From Hyaloperonospora brassicae (lineage: Eukaryota; Oomycota; Peronosporomycetes; Peronosporales; Peronosporaceae): a stretch of 64,000 nt of DNA. Position numbers and translations under genes: made by a program. Positions 8,620 to 62,350 of this stretch are shown one piece after another. Numbering within the stretch: the stretch's first letter is position 1; each line of letters starts with the position of its first letter. The stretch lies in contig CANTFL010000981.1 of assembly GCA_947650285.1 (NCBI GenBank), positions 1 to 64,000 on the forward strand, in the 5' to 3' direction. The notes beneath the pieces were generated by a model. The model was not told where the DNA came from. It did not search any database and worked only from the letters and a program-made list of their open reading frames with translations.

Positions 8620-9626
8620 ATGAGTTTAGAGCGAGTATCCTTCTCTATAGAGCAGAACTACGAGGTCCTTCGACACTGCAAAAAACGCTCAAACATCCTC
8701 TTTAACGAAGCGCAGACTTATGTAAGCATATAGTTCCAGCACAGCATTAGTAAATCAACGGCGCGTCGGCTCATGGCCACGAGAGAAATCGATTTTGAGG
8801 GCTTTAACCCTGATATAAAAAAGAAACGTCGTGTAAACCATCCTGATTTCGAGAAGGAGCTGCTGAAAATTCTTTCTCGAGCGCGAGATTGACGGGTTTT
8901 CGAAAGATCTGGCCCTGAACAAAGCAGACCGACTGCGAGTATGCCATGATATCGACGATCACGATCTCAAGCTTTTCAAAATCTGGCTCCATAGTTCCAA
9001 GAAACGGAATAAAATCAAAAGCCGCGCGTTGACAGGCGGGAGCTGATGCTTATGTATCGAGGATGTGCAAGCAGCAAAGTCTGAGACCCGATCTCTGATT
9101 GAACAAAATTCTCCGAGTGATTTGTTTAATTTTGATGAGACAGCATTGTTTTACGACTTGCCACCGAGCAAAACCCTATCCACGGTACGAAACAACTGCG
9201 AGAAGAACGTAAAGTCACGCGTAACAGTTGCTCTGTGCTGCAACTCAAGTGGCTCGGAAAATCTGGAGCCCATGATCATCGGGAGGTTCAAATAGCCAAG
9301 GTGCTTTAATGATGTGGAGATCGAGAAGCGTGGCATCGTATACGCTGCAAAATCAAACGCCTGGATGACTGTATTTATCTTTGGTAAGTGGCTGCATCAA
9401 TTTAACCTTCGAATGCATGGTCGTAAAGTCCTGCTACTTCTCGATAATGCTTCCAGTCACAAGGTCCAACGAGAACTCAACAACTACAATGTGGTATTTT
9501 TTCCGCCTAGCATGACTTCCACTATCCAGCCGCTCGATGCAGGTACGCATTAATCTCATATTTTATATGTGTGCGTTTTAAATCTACATAAATCTCCTCA
9601 CCTACATATATGTTATATTGGTATCA
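8620..9626 (+). pseudogene. Tigger-like DDE transposase, 5' part
   Basis: The frame opens at ATG 8,620 and shows the N-terminal helix-turn-helix region of pogo/CENP-B transposases (SISKSTARRLM), stopped by TAG near 8,731 and again by TGA near 8,890. The catalytic core is at 9,065-9,553: FNFDETALF (first Asp), LLLLDNASSH (second Asp) and TIQPLDAG (third Asp). One in-frame TAG interrupts it at 9,293-9,295, probably a former CAG. After the third Asp the frame runs into what looks like a 78-bp intron at 9,543-9,620 and then into the inserted LTR element. The rest of the protein continues at 17,618. Confidence 0.8.
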
Positions 9627-10018
9627 TGTAACGGGGCAGCCCGTTACATGGAAATTGTCATTCAGAAGATAATGACAATAAAGAATATTAAGTTGAATAT
9701 TCTTTTAACAATATCACCAATGGTGGTGATATTGATGGGTCGACCAAAGAGTCTGCTCATTGGTTGATATCTTGACGATATCAACCCACCAATCGCCGCA
9801 AGACACGCGCAATGAGTGGTGAGTAGACGTCACCATACACTCAGTTTGATTAGAATAATTAAGTTAAGTCAAAAAGAGAGACAGTGGTTTAAGACTTAAT
9901 TATATTAATATAACAGTTCTGTTTTACCTTATCTACGCTTTCTCGTTTGCCTCGTGTATGTCTGTCGGGCGCACCAAAACCCTTGCGTTAAGTTCACGCA
10001 AGGGTGTGCCCCGTTACA
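9627..10018 (+). repeat. 5' LTR
   Basis: The LTR runs from TGTAACGGGGCA to TGCCCCGTTACA, a perfect 12-bp inverted repeat at its own ends. Internal perfect hairpins include 9,627-9,648 (9-bp arms), 9,681-9,704 (AAGAATATT arms) and one in the last 40 bp (CCCTTGCGT arms). It matches the 3' LTR along its full length with small indels. Confidence 0.95.
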
Positions 10019-10020
10019 CC

Positions 10021-10036
10021 TGGTAGCACTTTGTAG
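10021..10036 (+). promoter_or_regulatory. Putative primer-binding site
   Basis: TGGTAGCACTTTGTAG begins two bases after the 5' LTR. TGG is the complement of a tRNA CCA end, as in most Ty3/gypsy elements. The matching tRNA was not identified. Confidence 0.5.
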
Positions 10037-10119
10037 TCCTTCCAAGGACCACAGCATCCAGCATGAACATGTTGGATGATGAATAGACCTTTCACGCTAC
10101 GCGTGAAGGGTTTACCCAT

Positions 10120-11216
10120 TTGAGTGACATCGAATGGAGTGCGGTAGAACGAATGAGTTCTACTGTAAGCGAGTTCGCCATTAGCGCCATGTTGGAGTCT
10201 CTAAACAGAGACCAACAACATGCTGCTATAGCCAAGTTCATTCAAAATGAACTTGCCATCGAAAGGGAGAAAGTAGCCTTGCTTCACCAGCAAGGCTCTC
10301 AACAGGCCGAGCAGTTGAGAGAACTCGGTGCTCAACAGACAGAGCTGTTGATACAGCAGCAATTCCATGCAGCTGTGGGCGGGAAGGCGCATGTGCGTCG
10401 TCCCGAGGTCATGAAGGTTGACATCTCCAAGTACAGTGGAGTCCCGGAGGACTCCCTGTTACTATGATTTGTCGAACTCGACAGAGCCTAAAGGGCTTGT
10501 CGCGTCGAAGATGAGCAAATGAAACTCACATTTGCTCAGACCCACTTGGCAGGGCGTGCCTAAACTTGGTCCCTGGGACTCGAGAGTAGCGACCCACATG
10601 TGTTTAGGTTGCTAGATGACTTCAAGTCACGGCTCAGACAAACGTTTGAGCCTCCACGAGCTGAGTTCAGGGCTCGTTCTGAGCTCCAAAAATCAAGCAG
10701 GGTAAGCGTGATGTGCACGCTTACGCACAACATATACGACTCCTAGCGAGTAGTATAACTGCCAACCCAGTTCATGAACACACGTTGATTACGGTGTTCA
10801 TGCAAGGGCTCGCAGAAGGGCCCGTCAGGAGCCACCTGTTCCGCCTTGAGCTGAATACGCTTGATTAAGCGATATCAGCCGCGGAACAGGAAGACTTTAG
10901 CATGAGACAGGCTCATGCTAGCTCAAACTCTTAACGTCCACCGAGACGACAAGAGATCGGAGGCCCAGAACCAATGGACCTCTGCTATGTTGAGAGCGAG
11001 AGACCTCGCTCTTCAAACAACAAGCGATTGCAGAAGTGCAATCGCTGTCAGAAGTTAGGGCACTACGCATGTGAGTGTAGTGCTGCACGCCCAGTACCAA
11101 ACAGTACTGGGCGAAATGGACGACCATTCGCCAAGAAGGGCAATGGGCGTAGGTCCAGCGCTGTTGCGAAACCGCAACAGCGAGACGGACCATCAAAGAA
11201 TGGTCGGGGTCAGTAG
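10120..11216 (+). pseudogene. Gypsy gag with CCHC nucleocapsid knuckle (broken)
   Basis: The first frame (10,120-10,467) is a glutamine-rich, probably coiled-coil gag N-terminus and opens at TTG where an ATG is expected. The middle is out of frame. The third piece (10,974-11,216) contains CNRCQKLGHYACEC, a perfect C-x2-C-x4-H-x4-C knuckle followed by a basic tail. The protein would package the element's RNA. Stops and frame changes between 10,467 and 10,974 make it non-functional. Confidence 0.8.
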
Positions 11217-11266
11217 GGGCGGAGCGACCTATTGATCCAGCAACCTCAAGAGAATTTGCGAATCTC

Positions 11267-12007
11267 TTGACGAAAGTTGCTCCAGATACAAAATCATTGT
11301 GTGTCTCTGCACCTGGTGATGACGTTTCGCTCATCACCTTGAAGTTGGAAGCGACAAATGATTTGTCGCTTCGTGCCCTAGAAGACTGTGGGGCGTCGAA
11401 CAACTTTGTTCGTCGCCAGTCACTAGAGGGTCGTAGGCTCAAGTTTGTTGAGCGCGACGTTCCCCTCACGAGGATGACGGTGCGCCTTGCAACAGGCGCA
11501 TCGATAACCGTTGAGAAACGTGTAGTCGTGATCCACCACAAGTTAGAAGGAGAACAGTACGATGATGACTTCATCGTACTGGATCTGGATGACAAATTTG
11601 ATGTCATCCTGGGATTACCTTGGATCAGAAGGTGCGATCCAAGGGTGAGCTGGCAGCATCGATCCGTGAAGATGCCTGCTGCTAGTTCATCAGATGGCCA
11701 TCTGATGAACATCTTGGAGCGTCCACAAGCGTGTGGATGTTCTGCGAGTGAGTGCGATGGTCTCACTTGCGGTACGGTCGTTAGCACGACTGCACAAGAT
11801 CACAGTGTAGTTGATCACTACACTGTGGAGCAAGCTCCCGGCGGCTGTACAGAAGTACAGGCTGCGCCGAAGGTCCACCACTCGAATAAGTCGAGTGGAC
11901 CGGGACATGGATGCATGCCTAGCGGGCAGAATATTAGACAGAAGAAACCTGTTGCCTCCAAAAGGCAACATGGAAATCCTAGGTCGACTGTAGAGTCGAC
12001 CGTATAG
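11267..12007 (+). pseudogene. Gypsy aspartic protease region
   Basis: A 246-codon frame contains EDCGASNNFV, the catalytic retropepsin box, with Cys where Ser or Thr usually follows the Asp, and later DVILGLPWI, the C-terminal hydrophobic-G block. The protease would release the element's proteins from the polyprotein. The first codon is not ATG, as expected inside a polyprotein. Position 11,685-11,710 inside it is a perfect 26-bp palindrome. Confidence 0.8.
11685..11710. repeat. Perfect 26-bp palindrome in the protease region
   Basis: The 13-bp arms (centre GGCC) match without mismatch. It is one of the strongest of the many inverted repeats in the element. Confidence 0.95.
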
Positions 12008-12506
12008 GATCGGTGCCTGACTGTGGTTTCCGAGCCACAGTCAGAAGACGTCGAGGGAATTAGTCCCCACGTTCTTAAGGAAGGAATTTCTCAAGAGTCA
12101 CTTGCTGAGGGATCAGGCCCTCAGCAACCTGTGGAAGCAAGTTCCCAGGAAGTAACCGAGACGTTGAACGTCTTGGTTGATGACGGATAAAGAGTAGGCG
12201 CTTATACGCTTGATCTGATTGTACCTCCGAAGTTAACTTCGGAGAGAACTCAGTTGCCAACGCTAGAACCGAAACGGTTCTTGCGTGATCTGCGTAGTGG
12301 CAAAGTCAAGCAGATCTGCATACTCGTCACAGAGGATGAGTATGTGGCCGATATTCGGTCGGCCACAGTATTTGCTGAGAACGAACGGGTTCTCAGCAGC
12401 TCATCGATGGACGAAAGTGTCCTCGATGAGAAGACTCGGATTGAGTGATACGCGTCCCAATCCTGGGAGTCACTTCAGGCAAATCCTTTGTAAAAGGATT
12501 TGATCG

Positions 12507-12560
12507 AAGGTACGGATTCAAAGAACACAACCTTGAACGAGTTTCCTGAATCCGTACCTT
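12507..12560. repeat. Inverted repeat, 14-bp perfect arms, 26-nt loop
   Basis: AAGGTACGGATTCA at 12,507-12,520 pairs exactly with 12,547-12,560. It directly follows another hairpin with 10-bp arms and a 3-nt loop at 12,480-12,502. Confidence 0.95.
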
Positions 12561-12706
12561 GCGAGTTGCCTAAGGACAAAGGCACTCGACACGAGATCGA
12601 GCTCAGACCGGGCTCGAAGTACTGTGTCATGAAGCAGTGGCCACTGCCTCGTGAATAAGTACCATCTATCGACAAGTTCTTTGCCGATCGCTTAGCAGCG
12701 GGCCAT

Positions 12707-14025
12707 GTGAGAAAATCAAAATCCCCTTACAGCTCTCCGACCTTCTGTGTGCGAAAGGCAACAGGAAGATGGCGGATAGTGCACGCATTCAACAAATTGA
12801 ATGCTGCAACGGTACCGGCTCAGACGCCGATACCGAGGAAGGACGTAATCATAGATGGTATGTCAAAGATCACCATCTTTTCGTCCATGGATCTGATGGA
12901 TGGGCTCTATCAGATCCTCATGCGTGAACGGGACATCCCGTTCACGGCAGTGAGTACCCCCAGCGGGATGATGTGGGAGTGGCTAGTGATGCCACAGGGG
13001 CTGAGTAATGCCCCTGCAACATTCAACAGATGTGTAACAAATCTGTTGAGACCGGTGCGAGACTTCGCACCGAGTTACTTCGACGATGTGTTCGTCCATA
13101 GCCGGGCTATAGACGGAAAGACGGACGTTGAAGTTCACAGAACTCACGTTCGTCAGGTTCTCTAATTTATGCGCAAGCATAAGTTGTACGCCAACCTCAA
13201 GAAGTGTATATTCGCGGCTAGCGAAATACCACTTCTTGGGTGCATCGTGGGTAAACACGGCGTACGCCCTTATCCCGAAAAGATCAAGGCGATCACCGAC
13301 TGGCCAGTGCCAGTCGATGTCAAGGGACTTCGGAAGTTCCTTGGTCTAGCGGCTTACTTGCACAAGTACTCGCGCAACTACGCCGAGATGACTGTTCATC
13401 TTTCTTGCTTGCTCAAGGAAAATGTCAACTGGTCATGGAACGCTGAGTGCCAGCGTTCCTTTGAGGGTATCAATCAAAGCTTGGTGCAATCGCTGATTTT
13501 GGCGATTGCAGATCAGGACAGACCATTTCATGTGGTCTGTGACGCCAGCGTTTTTGCAATCGGCTGTGCGTTACTACAGTTCGACGCAGATGGCGCGGAG
13601 CGCGTCATCTGTTATCAGTCGCGTCAGCTGCAAGCAGCTGAGGGTAATTACCCAGTGCATGACAAGGAACTCCTTGCCATGAAATATACACTGGCTAATT
13701 TCGCGTCTATCTCTTGGGAGATAGACCGTTCATCGTCTATACGGATCATGCGTCATTACGCACGGCCGTAAACAGTCTACACCTCTCGCAACGAATGGCG
13801 AGGTGGCTGTCTTTCTTCGCGGAGTACAACTTCTCCGTGGAGTATAAACCCGGACGACTAAACGTCTTCGCTGATGCGCTCTCGCGTCGGCCCGATTTCG
13901 AGCCGGACGCTCAATCCAACAGTGAGGATACGCCTACTGTTGCGACACTGTCAGTCAGTGTCCCGTCGTTAAGTTTACTTGACGACGTACGAAAGGCATA
14001 CGCAGAAGATAAGGATCTTCTGTGA
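12707..14025 (+). pseudogene. Gypsy reverse transcriptase and RNase H
   Basis: The first part (12,707-13,165) holds GRWRIVHAFNKLN, FSSMDLMDGLYQI (motif A), MPQGLSNAPATF (motif B) and SYFDDVFV (motif C catalytic box), then stops. The same frame continues from 13,169 with the thumb and the RNase H start (VVCDASVFAIG). A frame change near 13,705 leads into IVYTDHASLRT and the tether NVFADALSRRP. The RT copies RNA to DNA and RNase H removes the RNA. The stop at 13,163-13,165 and the frame change inactivate it. Confidence 0.9.
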
Positions 14026-15450
14026 TTGATGTATCATCTGGTGAATCCATCCAGTAAATCCATAAGGGATTTACCGGCTTTGTACCGATCCTCATCGGAT
14101 CGGTATATTACACGCAACGGATTGCTGTACTATACAGCTGTTGCCGACGACACGCCTCGTGTCGTCGTCCCCGCTCATCATGATTTTTGTTTACGCATCA
14201 TGTATGAGTGTCACGATGGTTCAACAGGCGGCCATCGTGGTAGAGGAAAGACTTACCTCACAGTAAGTCGTGATTTTTACTGGCCACGCCAGTATCAGTT
14301 TTACGTAAGTACAAACGTGCTTTGAGGTTTGTCAACGGGTATAGCCTAGTCCTTCATCCCGTGCGCCATTGCAGCCTCTGCCTGTTCCGACAGAGTGCTG
14401 GCAGTCCGTTTCAATGGACTTCGTCTTCGGTTTTCCCGAAGACGCTCACAAGAATACTGGTATTCTTGTGATTGTTGACCGATTCAGCAAGATGGTCCAT
14501 CTTGATGCTGTCCCTGAGTTGATCAAGGCTCACGGTTGTGCTCGTTTCTTTCTCGACACGGTCTTTGGACTCCACGGGTTACCCCGTGAACTTGTATCCG
14601 ACCGTGACCCTCGGTTCACGGCGGCATTTTGGCAAATCGTGTTCCGTTCTCTTGGAACAAGATTGAAGATATCCACTTCTGACCATCCCGAAACAGATGG
14701 TCAGACGGAACGAGCGAACCGTGTCCTTGAAGAGATCCTTCGAGGATGTGTTCACTCGTTTCCGAGTTGGAGCGAATTCCTACCCATGCTGGAATTCGCC
14801 ATCAATAATTCGGTGCATGCTTCAACCCAGACACACCGTTTTACGTGAATGGCTTACGTCATCCACGTGTGCCAGCCCTTCTAGAGTGTGACTCTTGGAT
14901 AAGGGGGAGGGACTCGCTCGAGCAAAAATTGTTTTGGCTCTTGCTCATCACGTGTCGACGCTAACGTCGTCACGTATGATGCCGATGTCGATCAGGTCGA
15001 CATCGATGAAGAAGATCACCTCAATAATAGCGACGACGCTATTATTGACTCGGATGATGATGACGATGCTGGTATATTCAGCATCGTCAGCGATTATGCC
15101 AGCGAGGAAGAAGACAACCTCGCTGAAGAAGAGAACAATCTCTTAGCAGTGTGCACGAAGCGCACTGAAAACACAACAACAAGTCAGCAGAGAACTTCCT
15201 GCTGACTCGAGAGGCGGTAGTCCGTTTCGTTCAGGACTCCATCACAAATGCGGTGGACCGTCAGAAACGGAACGCAGACAAGAATGGAAGAGCAAATGTT
15301 CTTTCATTTATAGTTTATGACCTAGTACTACTGTCAACGGTAAACTTACCTGGACATGCAGTCACTAGTGTCGGTAGTAGTAATCTACTGCCGAATTACA
15401 TTGGGCCATTTCGAGTGTTGCATCGCAAGGGCAATGTATACACACTCTAA
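14026..15450 (+). pseudogene. Gypsy integrase
   Basis: The zinc-binding end starts at 14,160-14,260 with the two His of the HHCC motif (ECHDGSTGGH), and its Cys pair is lost in a broken stretch. The catalytic core (14,369-14,848) has SMDFVFGFP (first Asp), LVSDRDPRF (second Asp) and ETDGQTERANRVLE (Glu), the full D,D-35-E set. A later piece (15,253-15,450) with YIGPFRVL is the GPY/F module. Frames change near 14,330, 14,848 and 15,250. Confidence 0.9.
14422..14471. repeat. Two abutting perfect hairpins in the integrase core
   Basis: CGTCTTCGG arms at 14,422-14,444 are followed after one base by TCACAAGAATAC arms (12 bp, 2-nt loop) at 14,446-14,471. Both lie inside the conserved catalytic core coding sequence. 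Confidence 0.95.
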
Positions 15451-16124
15451 TTGCCACGTAATATGCGCACGCATCCTACGTTTTACGTGGGGAGGCTCAG
15501 GCCGTACTGTCAGTACGAGCCTTCTTCTTCCGATGAAGATAGCTCCCACGTTCAAGAACATCCATCAAGTTCTTGCATTCGCGCTCCAGACGATCCGTCT
15601 AGTCGCGCAGATATGATACCTCGGAACTCATCCGAGATATCTCCCCGCGAGCTGTCGCCAGCTCGCCGAAAAGGAGCGGACATCCCGCTCGACCTGAAGC
15701 TGCGCCGTGGCATAATCGGCGCGATCCCTCGCCCGATCAGCCTCGTGATCCTTGCGGTTCTTTCGCACGGTATCGGTCAAAGCGTAGCGCCGGTCGCGCT
15801 CGTGCTTTAAGTCATCGCGCAATTCATCGATTGCGCTATCCATCTCGTAAGGGTCGAGATGGTGAACCGAATCATCTGGAGGAGGTCTTTCCTCCTCCAC
15901 CACATCCTTTGGTGGATGCTCAAGGTGATCAACGCTTTCTCGTGGAGCGTATCTTGAATCACCGTGACGATTCAGGATCAAGGACGAGCTACCTCGTCCA
16001 GTGAAGGGGGTATCCACCCTCTTGGAACAGCTGGGAGCACCGCTCTCAGCTGTTGATGGATGTTGAAGGTCTCGTCCGCCAGTATGACGAGACCCATCCG
16101 ATGAGTCCTCGGGCCCATCGGTAA
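15451..16124 (+). pseudogene. Gypsy pol tail with C-terminal chromodomain
   Basis: HPTFYVGRLRPY follows the GPY/F module, then a Ser/Asp-rich linker. In a third frame from 15,909 the translation reads QRFLVERILNHRD, SRTSYLV, then after one TGA RGYPPSWNSWE and VEGLVRQYDETHP, ending at TAA 16,124. This is a chromodomain, marking the element as a chromovirus whose integrase would be guided by modified histones. The in-frame TGA sits where the conserved W of the K/R-W box is expected. Confidence 0.8.
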
Positions 16125-17101
16125 ACACGCGCTTTTGGCGCTTGTAGACGGATTGCAAGTTTGTAATCGCGTCACGCATCTCAGCCGAGATGTGTGCCCT
16201 TCCCCAGGGCGAACTTAGAGAATACACGTCCCTGTGCGCACGCTGCACGTTGTCAACACAAATTGCACAAGGGTCTCCCCATGTAAGGCAAGGAATGCCT
16301 GCCTCACTCGACAAACGATGCAACCGGTACCTAGCACCGGTTGGCGTTCGCCTTTCGAACCTGAGGCGTGTCGCCTCAAGTTTTTGAGCCACCCTTCTCG
16401 TCCAAAATTCTTTACGTTTTGGACGAACGCGTTCCACGCAGACAAAAGAGAGGCTTTGTCACGCTTTTGGTTGCCATTGTACCATCGATGTCTAAGAAAG
16501 ACATCGAGATAAAAATCTTCTTCAGCGCGAAAGTTCTTCGCGCTGGAACTCAAGCCGTGAAGCTCAGTCGCATCGAATAAGGGTATTCGATGGTGTTGGC
16601 TTGTCTCGTGAGACAAGCTGTTGATGAGTGTTCGGGCAAACGCCACGGCTTCAGCTCATCACTCTTCACGGTGGTACCCTTGTCGGTAGCACGGCTCCCA
16701 GATTGGCGACGGCTCACGCCATCGTCATCACGCTCGTGCGAAGACGCACGAGCCGGCGGTGGTAAGGAATAATATTCCTCACCACCCTAATCATCGTCAT
16801 CACTGCCGAACAGACTGTGATGCAAATCACGAGTTTGTTCGTTCGGCAGTGGCCTTGGCAAATACTGAGGCGTCGCCGGTGAGCGAGACGCCTCTGGAGC
16901 ATAGCCCGAGTCAGACACGTCTGACTCGCCAGAATAGATGACCTCAAAGTCGGGATCATCATGCGCACGCGGTGAGGTGCCGCGTGCACCTGCAGCACCT
17001 GTTGCTGAAGGCGAAGAAGGAGCAGCAGACGACGAATCGTTTGCCGCAGAGGCTGGCACAGCACCTGGCTGTGTGGGTCTTGAGTCATCTCGCATAGACA
17101 T
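15628..17101 (-). pseudogene. Antisense reading frame(s) between chromodomain and 3' LTR
   Basis: Read on the minus strand from ATG 17,101, a Ser/Ala-rich N-terminus ends in an acidic run at 16,787. A second frame (16,646 to about 16,350) contains FLRHRWYNGNQKRDKASLL. A third frame (to 15,628) has GIPCLTWGDPCAICVDN. Read together with one stop and two frame changes they could be one protein of nearly 500 residues opposing gag-pol. The part below 16,124 overlaps the sense chromodomain and may be only a shadow. Function unknown. Confidence 0.4.
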
Positions 17102-17220
17102 TTTAACTATGCAAGGTAAAGCGGAAAGTGAATGGAGCGGACTTAACAAGTGCTCCCTGTCCCAATGGTGGCCAACGGGTGGCCGCCATATTTTCGATAG
17201 TCACACGGTGACTATCAGTT

Positions 17221-17228
17221 AGGGGTGA
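17221..17228 (+). promoter_or_regulatory. Putative polypurine tract
   Basis: AGGGGTGA directly abuts the start of the 3' LTR, where plus-strand DNA synthesis would be primed. It is short and contains one T. Confidence 0.5.
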
Positions 17229-17617
17229 TGTAACGAGGCAGCCCGTTACATGGAATTTTCACTTTAAAGAAAGTGACAATAAAGAATATTAAGTTGAATA
17301 TTCTTTAGACAATATCACCAAAGTGGTGATATTGAAGGGTCGACCAAAGAGTCTGCTCATTGGTTGATATCTTGATGATATCAACCCTCCAATCGCCGCA
17401 AGACACGCGCAATGAGTGGTGAGTAGACGTCACCATACACTCAGTTATATTAGCATAATTAAGTTAAGCCAAACAGAGATACAGTGGGTTAAAGACTTAG
17501 TTATATTAATATAACAGTTCTGTTTACCTTATCTACGCTTCCTCGCTTGCCTTGTGTACGTCTGTCGGGGCACCGATACCCTTGCGTTAAGTTCACGCAA
17601 GGGTGTGCCCCGTTACA
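17229..17617 (+). repeat. 3' LTR
   Basis: This is the full-length partner of the 5' LTR. It starts TGTAACGAGGCA, with one change in the terminal repeat, and ends TGCCCCGTTACA. It is followed directly by the TATCA target duplication at 17,618-17,622, matching 9,622-9,626. Confidence 0.95.
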
Positions 17618-18114
17618 TATCATCCGATCGTTTAAAGCTCGCTACAAGAAACTTCATATGCGATGGCGCATGGATCTGATCGAAGCAAACATGGAACGCA
17701 GATTTAACGTCGTAGAAGCCATTGAGTTTGCAGCTAAGAGCTGTAACATTATTGGCGGGGAGACCTTTGAAGTTGCTGGATCAAGAGTGGGGTCATCGAA
17801 GCGCCACAGGTTGCGGATTTGCGTGCACAAAACGAATATCGACAGTCCAGCCTCGCCTTCCAACAAGACTGCTGCGATCTGGCTGATATGTTTCAAAAGC
17901 TTGGTGTCACCGTCAGCGATGGATGATATGTCGAAATCGAAACCACGAGCCGAGTCACGAAGAACAAGAAGCTCTGATTGAACCAGAAGTGGATCCCGCG
18001 GGAGTCGAAAGCGACGGAGATCAAGCGCCTGTCAGTGCAAGAGAAGCACTAAAGTGCTGCCTGCTTTTGCGTTCGTACTTCATACGCTCAGATGAGGACA
18101 CGCGAATCCTATAG
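17618..18114 (+). pseudogene. Tigger-like DDE transposase, 3' part
   Basis: Immediately after the right LTR the translation resumes with IIRSFKARYKKLHMRW, the block that follows QPLDAG in pogo/Tigger transposases. The tail ends in DPAGVESDGDQAPVSAREA and stops at 18,114. A frame change lies between about 17,770 and 17,930. Together with 8,620-9,626 this shows that the gypsy element landed inside an existing transposase gene. Confidence 0.75.
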
Positions 18115-60729: not shown

Positions 60730-62350
60730 ATGCCCCGCCGCGCCATCGTCTCCTGCGCGCTGAGCCGCAGCTTTGCCACGAAAGCACCACGCGACACGTT
60801 GCAAGAGCGCGTCGTGGCACTGTGTCGTCATCGTGGCTTCGTCTTCCCTGGCTCGGATCTCTACGGCGGCCTCGCCAACAGCTTTGACTATGGACCGCTC
60901 GGTACGTCGTCCACCATTCCCTCTATCTATCTATCTATCTATCGATCGATCGATCGATCCATCTATCTATCTCTATATATTATATGTATATACATGCCTG
61001 TCTACCTACACGTCTGTATGCTAATGCCACTTGGTTGTTGCGTGTCCTCTCAACTGCTGCACGTTTGCAGGAGCACTCATGAAGAAGAACGTGATGGATC
61101 GCTGGTGGCTCGAGTTCGTGCAGAAGCGCCCCAACTGCGTAGGTCTCGACAGCTCCGTGCTGCTCAACTCGGCCGTCTGGACGGCGTCTGGCCACGTGAA
61201 GAACTTTACGGACCCCATGACGGTCTGCAGCAATTGCAACTCCCGCGTCCGCGTGGACCAGTTGCTTGAAGCCGAGCTGCAGGACATTGACGCCGTCGCG
61301 TCGCTGTCGCTATCCGAAATGGATGCTTTGCTTGTACAGCTTGGCGTGCCGTGTCCTCACTGCAGCCACACGCGCAGCTTCCAGCCCACCAAGCAGTTCA
61401 ATTTGCTCTTTCGTACCAACATGGGTGCTACAGACGAGACCTGCGAGTGGATCTATTTACGTCCAGAGACGGCGCAAGGTGCCTACATTAACTTTGCCAA
61501 CGTGCAGAGCACAATGCGCAAGAAATTGCCGTTCGGCATTGGTCAAATGGGCAAGAGCTTCCGCAACGAGATTTCGCCTGGGCACTTTCTGTTTCGCACG
61601 CGCGAGTTTGAGCAACTGGAGCTGCAGTTCTTCACCAATCCGAACGAATCGGACGGCTGGTACCTCTACTGGGTGGACCAGTGCTACGACTTTCTGACCA
61701 AGTACGGCATCAAGTCCGAGAATCTGAGGAAGCACGAACATGCGCCTGAGGAATTAGCCCACTACGCTCGCGCCACGACGGACATTCAGTTCAAGTATCC
61801 GTTTGGCTGGAGCGAGTTGTGGGGCATTGCAAATCGCACCAGCTATGACCTGAAGAAACACATGGACGCGAGTGGAAAGAGTCTCAAGTATCAGGACCTT
61901 GTTGCGAAAGAAGAGTTCTTGCCGCACGTGATTGAACCGGCGCTCGGTGTTGGACGTGTCATGCTTTCGATGCTGCTGGATGCTTACGATGAAGAAGAAG
62001 TAAACGGCCGACAACGCACCCTGCTGCGTCTGCATCCGGATATCGCTCCGTACCGTTTCGCAGTGCTGCCTCTTGTGAAGAAGGAACCTTTGTTGGAAGT
62101 GGCTCAGAAGCTTTTCGAGGATTTGTGTGGAAGTGCTAGCGTGGACTATGATGTGGCGGGAAGCATTGGCCGCCGTTACCGCCGCCAAGACGAGATCGGC
62201 ACGCCAATGTGCTTGACTGTGGATTTCGATACTCTGGACGATAAGTGTGTGACGGTTCGTGACCGCGACAGTTTGGAGCAGAAGCGCGTGCCGATTCAAC
62301 AGATCCTTCTAGGCACGTCAGTGATGCCTCCCAGTTTTTCTTCCTTTTAG
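60730..62350 (+). CDS. GRS1: Glycyl-tRNA synthetase (class II, dimeric type)
   Basis: Exons 60,730-60,901 and 61,071-62,350 join in phase 1 to 483 residues. The start [20 protein letters not shown] is a good mitochondrial presequence. An in-frame ATG at 60,658 would add 24 residues, so two start sites are possible. Landmarks are [51 protein letters not shown] cut as separate blocks, [16 protein letters not shown] (motif 2) and [15 protein letters not shown] (motif 3), then the anticodon-binding domain. It charges tRNA-Gly with glycine. The intron is 169 bp and carries CTAT/CGAT microsatellites. Confidence 0.93.
60920..60980. repeat. CTAT/CGAT microsatellite in GlyRS intron
   Basis: Runs of CTAT, CGAT and CCATCTAT units lie in the single intron. 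Confidence 0.85.

What the first reader, a model, noticed from the sequence alone, without database searches (positions are those of the whole stretch)
9627..17617. A whole LTR retrotransposon built from back-to-back perfect inverted repeats
From LTR to LTR the element is a nearly continuous chain of short perfect inverted repeats, in gag, protease, RT, RNase H, integrase, chromodomain, the antisense region and both LTRs. By eye I find at least 55 in the internal part with arms of 8 bp or more and mostly short loops. Examples: 10,233-10,255 (10-bp arms), 10,702-10,724 (9), 11,023-11,046 (9), 11,159-11,182 (10), 11,348-11,372 (11), 11,555-11,581 (11), 11,801-11,827 (11), 12,017-12,044 (10), 12,102-12,127 (10), 12,480-12,502 (10), 12,507-12,560 (14), 12,923-12,946 (10), 14,446-14,471 (12). 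Chance expectation for arms of 8 and loops up to 35 nt in 8 kb is about 8,000 x 35 / 65,536, or roughly 4. The surrounding LINE and Tigger sequence and the host genes do not show this. Either the element's RNA/cDNA is under selection to fold locally along its length, or its replication repeatedly converts imperfect into perfect palindromes, for example by intrastrand template switching of its RT. It could affect packaging, RNA silencing or recombination.
Basis: partly seen in the sequence, partly recalled or inferred. Interest (0 to 1): 0.93.

Follow-up and report, generated by a model that had tools for sequence, protein, structure and literature searches.

The report
Retrotransposon folded into hairpins throughout
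A jumping gene in a water-mould genome carries a short perfect hairpin roughly every 60-90 bases along its length, apparently kept there by natural selection on top of its protein code, which may be a way of hiding its RNA from the host's gene-silencing machinery.

Summary
The element (9627-17617) has 92 perfect inverted repeats (arms 8+, loops up to 40) against a mean of 4.0 in 20 dinucleotide shuffles. The window copy is decayed: 29 other copies hold 54-61 in a 4-kb pol piece where it holds 46. Protein-, codon- and dinucleotide-preserving shuffles of one open copy give 3.4 against 61. Sense-strand folding excess is 44-49%; one paper quotes 23.4% as the highest for vertebrate RNA viruses (PMC7642675).

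Variants shared between copies are three times rarer in hairpin arms than outside. Two related families share eight hairpins against 0.11 expected; more distant families have theirs elsewhere. The property, not the position, recurs. I saw no clear template-switch events in the copies examined. It works like the 'genome-scale ordered RNA structure' of persistent RNA viruses, in extreme form. One oddity: pairing is nearly strand-symmetric, with G-U tolerated little or no better than A-C. Best guess: selection for self-folding that shields the element's RNA, perhaps both strands, from RNA silencing. The shielding step is inferred.

The parts
9622..9626 (.). left target-site duplication TATCA
   Evidence: repeated at 17618-17622
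9627..10018 (+). 5' LTR (TG...CA) with perfect hairpins, e.g. 9627-9648, 9654-9679, 9680-9705, 9709-9734, 9762-9786, 9979-10005
10021..10028 (+). possible primer binding site (TGGTAGCA, initiator-Met tRNA type; recalled)
   Evidence: sequence; no tRNA match was run
10123..11250 (+). gag region (approximate ends), with stops and frame changes in this copy; hairpins e.g. 10233-10255, 10702-10724, 11023-11046, 11159-11182
   Evidence: translation in three frames with stops left in, hairpins; named gag from position and a CCHC-like knuckle seen by eye; a 92-aa piece had no Pfam match
11267..14900 (+). pol (protease, RT, RNase H, zinc-binding and core integrase), broken here, open in copy L003; hairpins throughout, e.g. 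11348-11372, 11555-11581, 11801-11827, 12507-12560, 12923-12946, 14446-14471
   Evidence: Pfam of the L003 frame: RVP_2, RVT_1, RT_RNaseH, Integrase_H2C2, rve
14936..17228 (.). 3' region: Tf2-like SH3 and chromodomain on + (Pfam matches in copy L079), long antisense reading frame on -, hairpins throughout
15628..16437 (-). antisense reading frame, 269 aa in this copy; 441 aa in L079, without Pfam match
17196..17216 (+). hairpin GATAGTCAC-ACG-GTGACTATC just before a possible polypurine tract (AGGGGTG)
17229..17617 (+). 3' LTR; 28 substitutions and 5 gap columns in 393 aligned columns against the 5' LTR
17618..17622 (.). right target-site duplication TATCA

Best explanation
A Ty3/Gypsy chromodomain retrotransposon family whose sequence is under selection to fold locally into short Watson-Crick hairpins (in copy L003 arms mostly 8-10 bp, loops most often 4-5 nt, one per 65 nt of pol), built in coding DNA largely by codon choice. 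SHOWN: excess over codon-matched shuffles, constraint on arms, hairpins held in common by two related families, independence of positions between more distant families. INFERRED: what is selected is the global state 'self-folded, without long duplexes', as in GORS of persistent RNA viruses. MOST LIKELY REASON (inferred): a self-folded genomic RNA, and a self-folded complementary strand, is a poor partner for siRNAs and antisense RNA and forms little long dsRNA, so the element is shielded from host RNA silencing; stems stay at or below 14 bp in the window element and in L003, which should be too short for Dicer (recalled).
For: Excess: 61 against 3.4 under codon- and dinucleotide-preserving shuffles. 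Folding excess of A pol 48.1% (19 windows of 200 nt, mean z -6.9), 3' region 45.2%, window gag piece 49.3%; two host-gene stretches, one other RT locus and copia L074 lie below 4%; 350-nt windows give 48.6% and 44.4%. Constraint: variants shared by two or more of 29 copies: arms 15/1129 sites, loops 20/398, outside 96/2472; third codon positions 9/386, 12/128, 64/819 (arms against outside p=1.6e-5 and 8.6e-5). Singletons, which should mostly post-date insertion, are not significantly depleted (41/1129 against 112/2472, p=0.25). Fourfold sites in 37 copies: arms 8/189, loops 9/51, outside 45/413, arms against outside p=0.008. Conservation: B and C share 8 hairpin centres against 0.11, 2 of 55 pairs changed on both sides, although third positions differ by 57% elsewhere. 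Position-free: A-B 0, A-D 0, C-D 0, B-D 1, A-C 2 shared centres against nulls of 0.12-0.46. Loops have more A on the + strand (0.299 against 0.244 outside, p=0.021 with L003 as reference; 0.006 and 0.007 with L008 and L018). In L003, 67% of 21-mers and 71% of 25-mers overlap stem arms (7+) by 5 nt or more. In Phytophthora the larger small-RNA class (25/26 nt) is mainly associated with transposable elements (PMC3804510, passages).
Against: Against folding of sense RNA alone: folding excess is about equal on both strands (48.1 and 50.8%; 45.2 and 43.0%; gag piece 49.3 and 40.2%), and G-T is not clearly commoner than A-C: 13 against 11 internal single mismatches in L003, L079 and the gag piece (L003 and L079 overlap by some 250 bases), 5 against 7 among shared variants. 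The decayed window element leans to G-T, 13 against 8. Against silencing as the reason: no small-RNA or expression data were at hand; in P. infestans annotated inverted repeats gave more small RNAs per Mbp than transposable elements (PMC3804510, passage), so inverted repeats as such need not shield; family D copies C10 and C372 are 99.6% alike, so apparently young, yet hold 1 perfect repeat (arm 8+) each in 3 kb, though D has folding excess. About 30% of 21-25-mers in L003 overlap arms by less than 5 nt, and the longest arm-free run is 190 nt. Constraint was measured in one genome, on copies chosen as best matches to the window; hairpins were defined in one copy at a time, and copies are not independent.
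Confidence: 0.5

Rival explanations
1. Mutational origin: the element's RT, or a host polymerase, repeatedly switches template within a strand and turns imperfect into perfect palindromes; selection on protein removes the harmful ones.
For: Pairing is perfect and nearly strand-symmetric, as copying would give. Arm lengths have a second mode at 8-9 above the chance background (18 at 6, 14 at 7, 19 at 8, 15 at 9, 12 at 10). Three of 13 B-only hairpins differ from C mainly in one arm (1 and 7, 1 and 5, 4 and 0 changes). In the window copy one gained hairpin includes three adjacent substitutions. Against some relatives, P0002, P0004 and P0005 among them, the 5' arm is less conserved in protein than the 3' arm, but others show the reverse (15 proteins).
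Against: Of 10 hairpins found in one of 38 copies only, 6 differ from the commonest form at one column (two of them by a gap alone), the rest at 2-4. Of 154 cells where a common hairpin is missing, 128 differ from the commonest form at 1-2 columns, as point decay would give. 12 of 13 B-only hairpins (arm 7+) differ from C on both arms. Among shared variants 13 pairs are broken and 1 is switched on both sides, whereas re-perfecting should switch many; the protein filter weakens that argument.
Confidence: 0.15
2. Dispersed packaging or assembly signals: Gag binds many hairpins to condense and package the RNA.
For: Hairpins lie all along the element including the LTRs, and elements of this class package RNA (recalled).
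Against: No common loop motif was seen by eye in 76 listed loops of 3-8 nt from A sequences, 4 of them listed twice; no motif search was run. Families A, B/C and D place hairpins differently. Strand symmetry is left unexplained.
Confidence: 0.15
3. Constraint at the DNA level: hairpins matter in single-stranded cDNA or in integrated DNA (cruciforms, replication, recombination).
For: Near strand symmetry and little or no preference for G-T over A-C.
Against: Loops have more A, not more T, on the + strand, which suggests a one-sided single-stranded role; singleton variants of integrated copies are not significantly depleted in arms, so the constraint seems to act across replication cycles.
Confidence: 0.15
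4. Chance, composition or codon usage.
For: No call supports it.
Against: Dinucleotide, codon and codon-plus-dinucleotide shuffles all stay far below the counts; flanking DNA is at background.
Confidence: 0.01

Closest known systems
[quoted passage not shown]
   Same: Many consecutive local stem-loops through coding sequence, excess folding energy over shuffles, pairings poorly conserved in position between relatives, a difference in variability between paired and unpaired sites, short duplexes (PMC7642675 and PMC3950689, passages only).
   Different: Carried by an LTR retrotransposon; folding excess 44-49% against about 15% for SARS-CoV-2 and a quoted maximum of 23.4% (their windows were 350 nt, matched); stems perfect and nearly strand-symmetric; host without interferon (recalled).
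Ty3/Gypsy LTR retrotransposons of oomycetes with chromodomain
   Same: Domain order, LTRs, 5-bp duplication, chromodomain; protein relatives in Peronospora effusa (85%), P. matthiolae (80%) and Globisporangium splendens.
   Different: A paper on oomycete LTR elements has no 'hairpin', 'palindrom' or 'inverted repeat' in its main text (PMC5348765, term search). The relatives' DNA could not be read here, so whether they share the trait is unknown.
Viroids folding to escape RNA silencing
   Same: Compact self-pairing proposed as an escape from RNA silencing (PMC3185485, abstract start in the listing).
   Different: Viroids are non-coding circles (recalled); here the folding is laid over gag-pol and LTRs.
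Quasi-palindrome template-switch mutation (recalled)
   Same: Would yield perfect inverted repeats.
   Different: The expected one-step replacement of an arm was not clearly seen.

Membership tests
Ty3/Gypsy LTR retrotransposon with chromodomain | two LTRs with TG..CA ends and short target duplication | tested here: met
Ty3/Gypsy LTR retrotransposon with chromodomain | protease-RT-RNase H-integrase order | tested here: met
   Pfam of the open L003 frame
Ty3/Gypsy LTR retrotransposon with chromodomain | chromodomain after integrase | tested here: met
   Chromo in L079:812-1192
GORS | folding-energy excess over dinucleotide shuffles along the genome | tested here: met
   44-49% on the sense strand
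GORS | pairings poorly conserved in position between relatives | tested here: met
   A, B/C and D share 0-2 centres per pair; the closer pair B-C shares 8
GORS | lower variability at paired sites | tested here: met
GORS | duplexes not longer than about 11 bp (PMC3950689 passage) | tested here: inconclusive
   of 34 arms of 10 or more in the window element, 29 are 10-11 and 5 are 12-14
GORS | genome of a positive-strand RNA virus | tested here: not met
   LTR retrotransposon; it works like GORS but is not a member as defined for viruses
GORS | reduced recognition by host defence | not testable with these tools
   needs silencing assays
Template-switch palindromes | one arm replaced in one event by the complement of the other | tested here: inconclusive
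   not clearly seen among 38 A copies; 12 of 13 B-only hairpins changed on both arms, 3 of 13 lopsided

The most novel reading that the evidence does not exclude
LTR retrotransposons of downy-mildew-like oomycetes have evolved, more than once, a genome-wide hairpin armour that is Watson-Crick perfect on both strands, so that neither the genomic RNA nor its antisense (a copy of the element carries a 441-aa antisense frame) readily anneals to its complement or to siRNAs: a purely nucleic-acid counter-defence against RNA silencing, written over coding sequence.
Probability: 0.3. Interest if true: 0.92.

Novelty: new variant of a known kind. Interest (0 to 1): 0.8.

Why it matters
The folding excess is about twice the maximum quoted for vertebrate RNA viruses in the paper consulted, and it sits in protein-coding sequence: two codes, protein and hairpin, in one stretch of DNA. 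If shielding is the reason, it offers a natural test of whether target structure alone defeats RNA silencing, with strongly, weakly and hardly structured relatives (families A to D and others) in one genome as built-in controls. Dense inverted repeats of this kind could also mislead tools that take inverted repeats for transposon ends or microRNA precursors.

Tried and rejected
Rejected: chance and codon usage. Rejected: a trait of all retroelements of the genome: 30 other RT loci (best RVT_1 hits, not classified further) have 0-6 repeats in 2.6-3.8 kb (5-shuffle means 0.8-2.8, so a few such as L056, L059 and L060 are slightly above), copia loci L074-L078 have 1-5 in 3 kb, L063 1, L064 2, L071 5. 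Copia L073 looked positive (14) but 12 of its 14 come from a tandem array of TGACGTCA. Six loci fetched as possible new families (L080-L085) turned out to be A (four) or B (two), so the family sample is small. Protein conservation of arms (15 of 120 listed proteins): about equal to or above outside against the two Peronospora proteins, lower by 2-9 points against the other 13 (five of the 13 with p<0.05 in the RT-integrase core); read as hairpins older than the split from Peronospora, but confounded with where protein constraint is weak. Against families B, C and D arms are also lower (43-46% against 54%). Arm length against GC content: weak negative trend, p=0.07. No relatives' DNA was found in viral contigs or genome contigs. 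Literature: nine searches listed, by title and abstract start, no paper on dense hairpins along an LTR retrotransposon; only open-licence PMC papers are held. A P. effusa pangenome paper has no 'hairpin' or 'palindrom' (PMC11540230, term search). Host: closest glycyl-tRNA synthetases are Phytophthora kernoviae 89% and Peronospora effusa 88%, so an oomycete of that kind; species not settled.
Full report
WHAT IS THERE. The element is an LTR retrotransposon with LTRs 9627-10018 and 17229-17617 and a TATCA duplication. Pol domains are those of Ty3/Gypsy (RVP_2, RVT_1, RT_RNaseH, Integrase_H2C2, rve, on copy L003); the 3' part of the same copy (L079) shows a Tf2-like SH3 domain, a chromodomain and a 441-aa antisense frame. 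The window copy is broken and 95.5% identical to L003. A 1-kb pol query matches 40 places in the same genome over nearly its full length, 39 of them besides the window's own, all at 96% (only 40 of 2102 first-look candidates were scored, so the number is a lower bound).

THE OBSERVATION. 92 perfect inverted repeats against 4.0 expected; 34 against 0.55 for arms of 10 or more. In the 4-kb pol piece 29 other copies have 54-61, the window copy 46. The 2.9-kb 3' piece L079 has 50 against 1.6. So the trait belongs to the family and is fading in this copy.

CODING. In L003, whose frame is open over 1332 codons in the piece, 61 repeats stand against 3.4 (maximum 7 of 30 shuffles) when protein, codon usage and dinucleotides are kept. 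Loops of 4-5 nt make up 23 of 61. The phase in which third positions face each other is the rarest (9 of 61; null 119 of 434), as expected if synonymous freedom is used. Arm lengths (loops up to 12) show a second mode at 8-9 above a background that falls about fourfold per base: 18, 14, 19, 15, 12, 6, 3 at 6 to 12 bp against nulls of 8.05, 2.3, 0.6, 0.1, 0.05, 0, 0. The longest arm in the window element and in L003 is 14.

FOLDING. Excess over dinucleotide shuffles, sense and antisense: A pol 48.1 and 50.8%; A 3' region 45.2 and 43.0%; gag piece of the window 49.3 and 40.2%; B 15.7 and 16.2%; C 4.0 and 7.9%; D 15.8 and 20.3%; L063, L064, copia L073 and L074, RT locus L031 and two host-gene stretches between -0.2 and 6.6%. 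With 350-nt windows A is 48.6 and 44.4%, B 14.1%, C 4.4%, L064 4.8%, D 17.0%, or 13.0% without its first 600 nt. D has one perfect repeat of arm 8 or more in its 3-kb piece; its excess comes from shorter or imperfect stems, some in repeats.

SELECTION. Shared variants among 29 copies are threefold rarer in arms than outside and nearly fourfold rarer than in loops (tests). Singletons show no significant depletion. The contrast (41 singleton to 15 shared in arms, 112 to 96 outside, p=0.0096) points to selection over replication cycles rather than to a low mutation rate. Hairpins were defined in one copy; two other reference copies gave the same fourfold-site result. Pairs switched on both sides are few: one in 26 of 30 copies, two private to the window copy and one private to L007. 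An LTR hairpin differs between the window's 5' LTR and the L079 LTR with changes on both arms (ATTGTCATT/AATGACAAT against ATTGTCACTTT/AAAGTGACAAT).

BETWEEN FAMILIES. B and C, 75% alike over 1536 aligned bases, share 8 hairpin centres (of 42 and 25 with arms of 6 or more), null 0.11 over 92 shifts. Shared arms are conserved partly by definition, so the number shared is the fair statistic. A, B/C and D share 0-2 per pair. The trait has therefore been built at different places in different lineages. Hairpins in B that C lacks mostly differ on both arms (12 of 13), three lopsidedly.

STRAND. Two results pull apart. Folding excess and tolerated mismatches are close to symmetric (G-T 13, A-C 11, other 11 in L003, L079 and the gag piece; shared variants 5 and 7), which speaks against sense-RNA folding as the sole target; the decayed window element leans to G-T, 13 against 8. 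Loops have more A on the + strand (p 0.006-0.021 in pol, 0.063 in the 3' piece), which speaks for a role of the + strand. A constraint on both the genomic RNA and its complement would meet the first; I hold it as the most likely, with modest confidence.

MECHANISM. GORS in RNA viruses has similar anatomy: consecutive stem-loops, drifting positions, short duplexes (PMC7642675, passages; PMC3950689, passages), and is thought to shield RNA from recognition. Oomycetes lack interferon (recalled) but in Phytophthora the larger small-RNA class is mainly associated with transposable elements (PMC3804510, passages). That makes silencing the natural candidate. It is an inference; no small-RNA data were at hand, and the same paper reports that annotated inverted repeats yield many small RNAs, which a shield of short stems would have to avoid. 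Template switching, packaging signals and DNA-level roles remain as rivals with the evidence listed.

LIMITS. One genome; the 30 fetched A loci are the best matches to the window's pol (8 more A loci were added later); few families; no DNA from relatives; p-values from related copies do not count independent events.

Noticed in passing
window 9627-10018 and 17229-17617: The two LTRs differ by 28 substitutions and 5 gap columns in 393 although the target duplication is intact; the 3' LTR looks closer to the LTR of copy L079. The 5' LTR may come from another subfamily by conversion or recombination.
   Followed up: partly
L079:891-2216 minus; window 15628-16437 minus: A 441-aa antisense reading frame overlaps the chromodomain reading frame of the + strand; no Pfam match.
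   Followed up: partly
L073:466-540: A copia locus carries a tandem array of the palindrome TGACGTCA, about 13 bp apart, a CREB/ATF-like motif (name recalled).
   Followed up: no
L066 (family D): Folding excess of 17% with only one perfect repeat of arm 8 or more: stems shorter or imperfect, partly in internal repeats of the ORF.
   Followed up: partly
window 9401-9544: The element lies beside a DDE_1 transposase piece (pogo/Tigger-like by recall), whose reading seems by eye to go on after the right duplication.
   Followed up: partly
window 60941-60959: ATCG microsatellite; with it the 60-62 kb bin has 8 perfect inverted repeats, more than any other bin that does not touch the element.
   Followed up: partly
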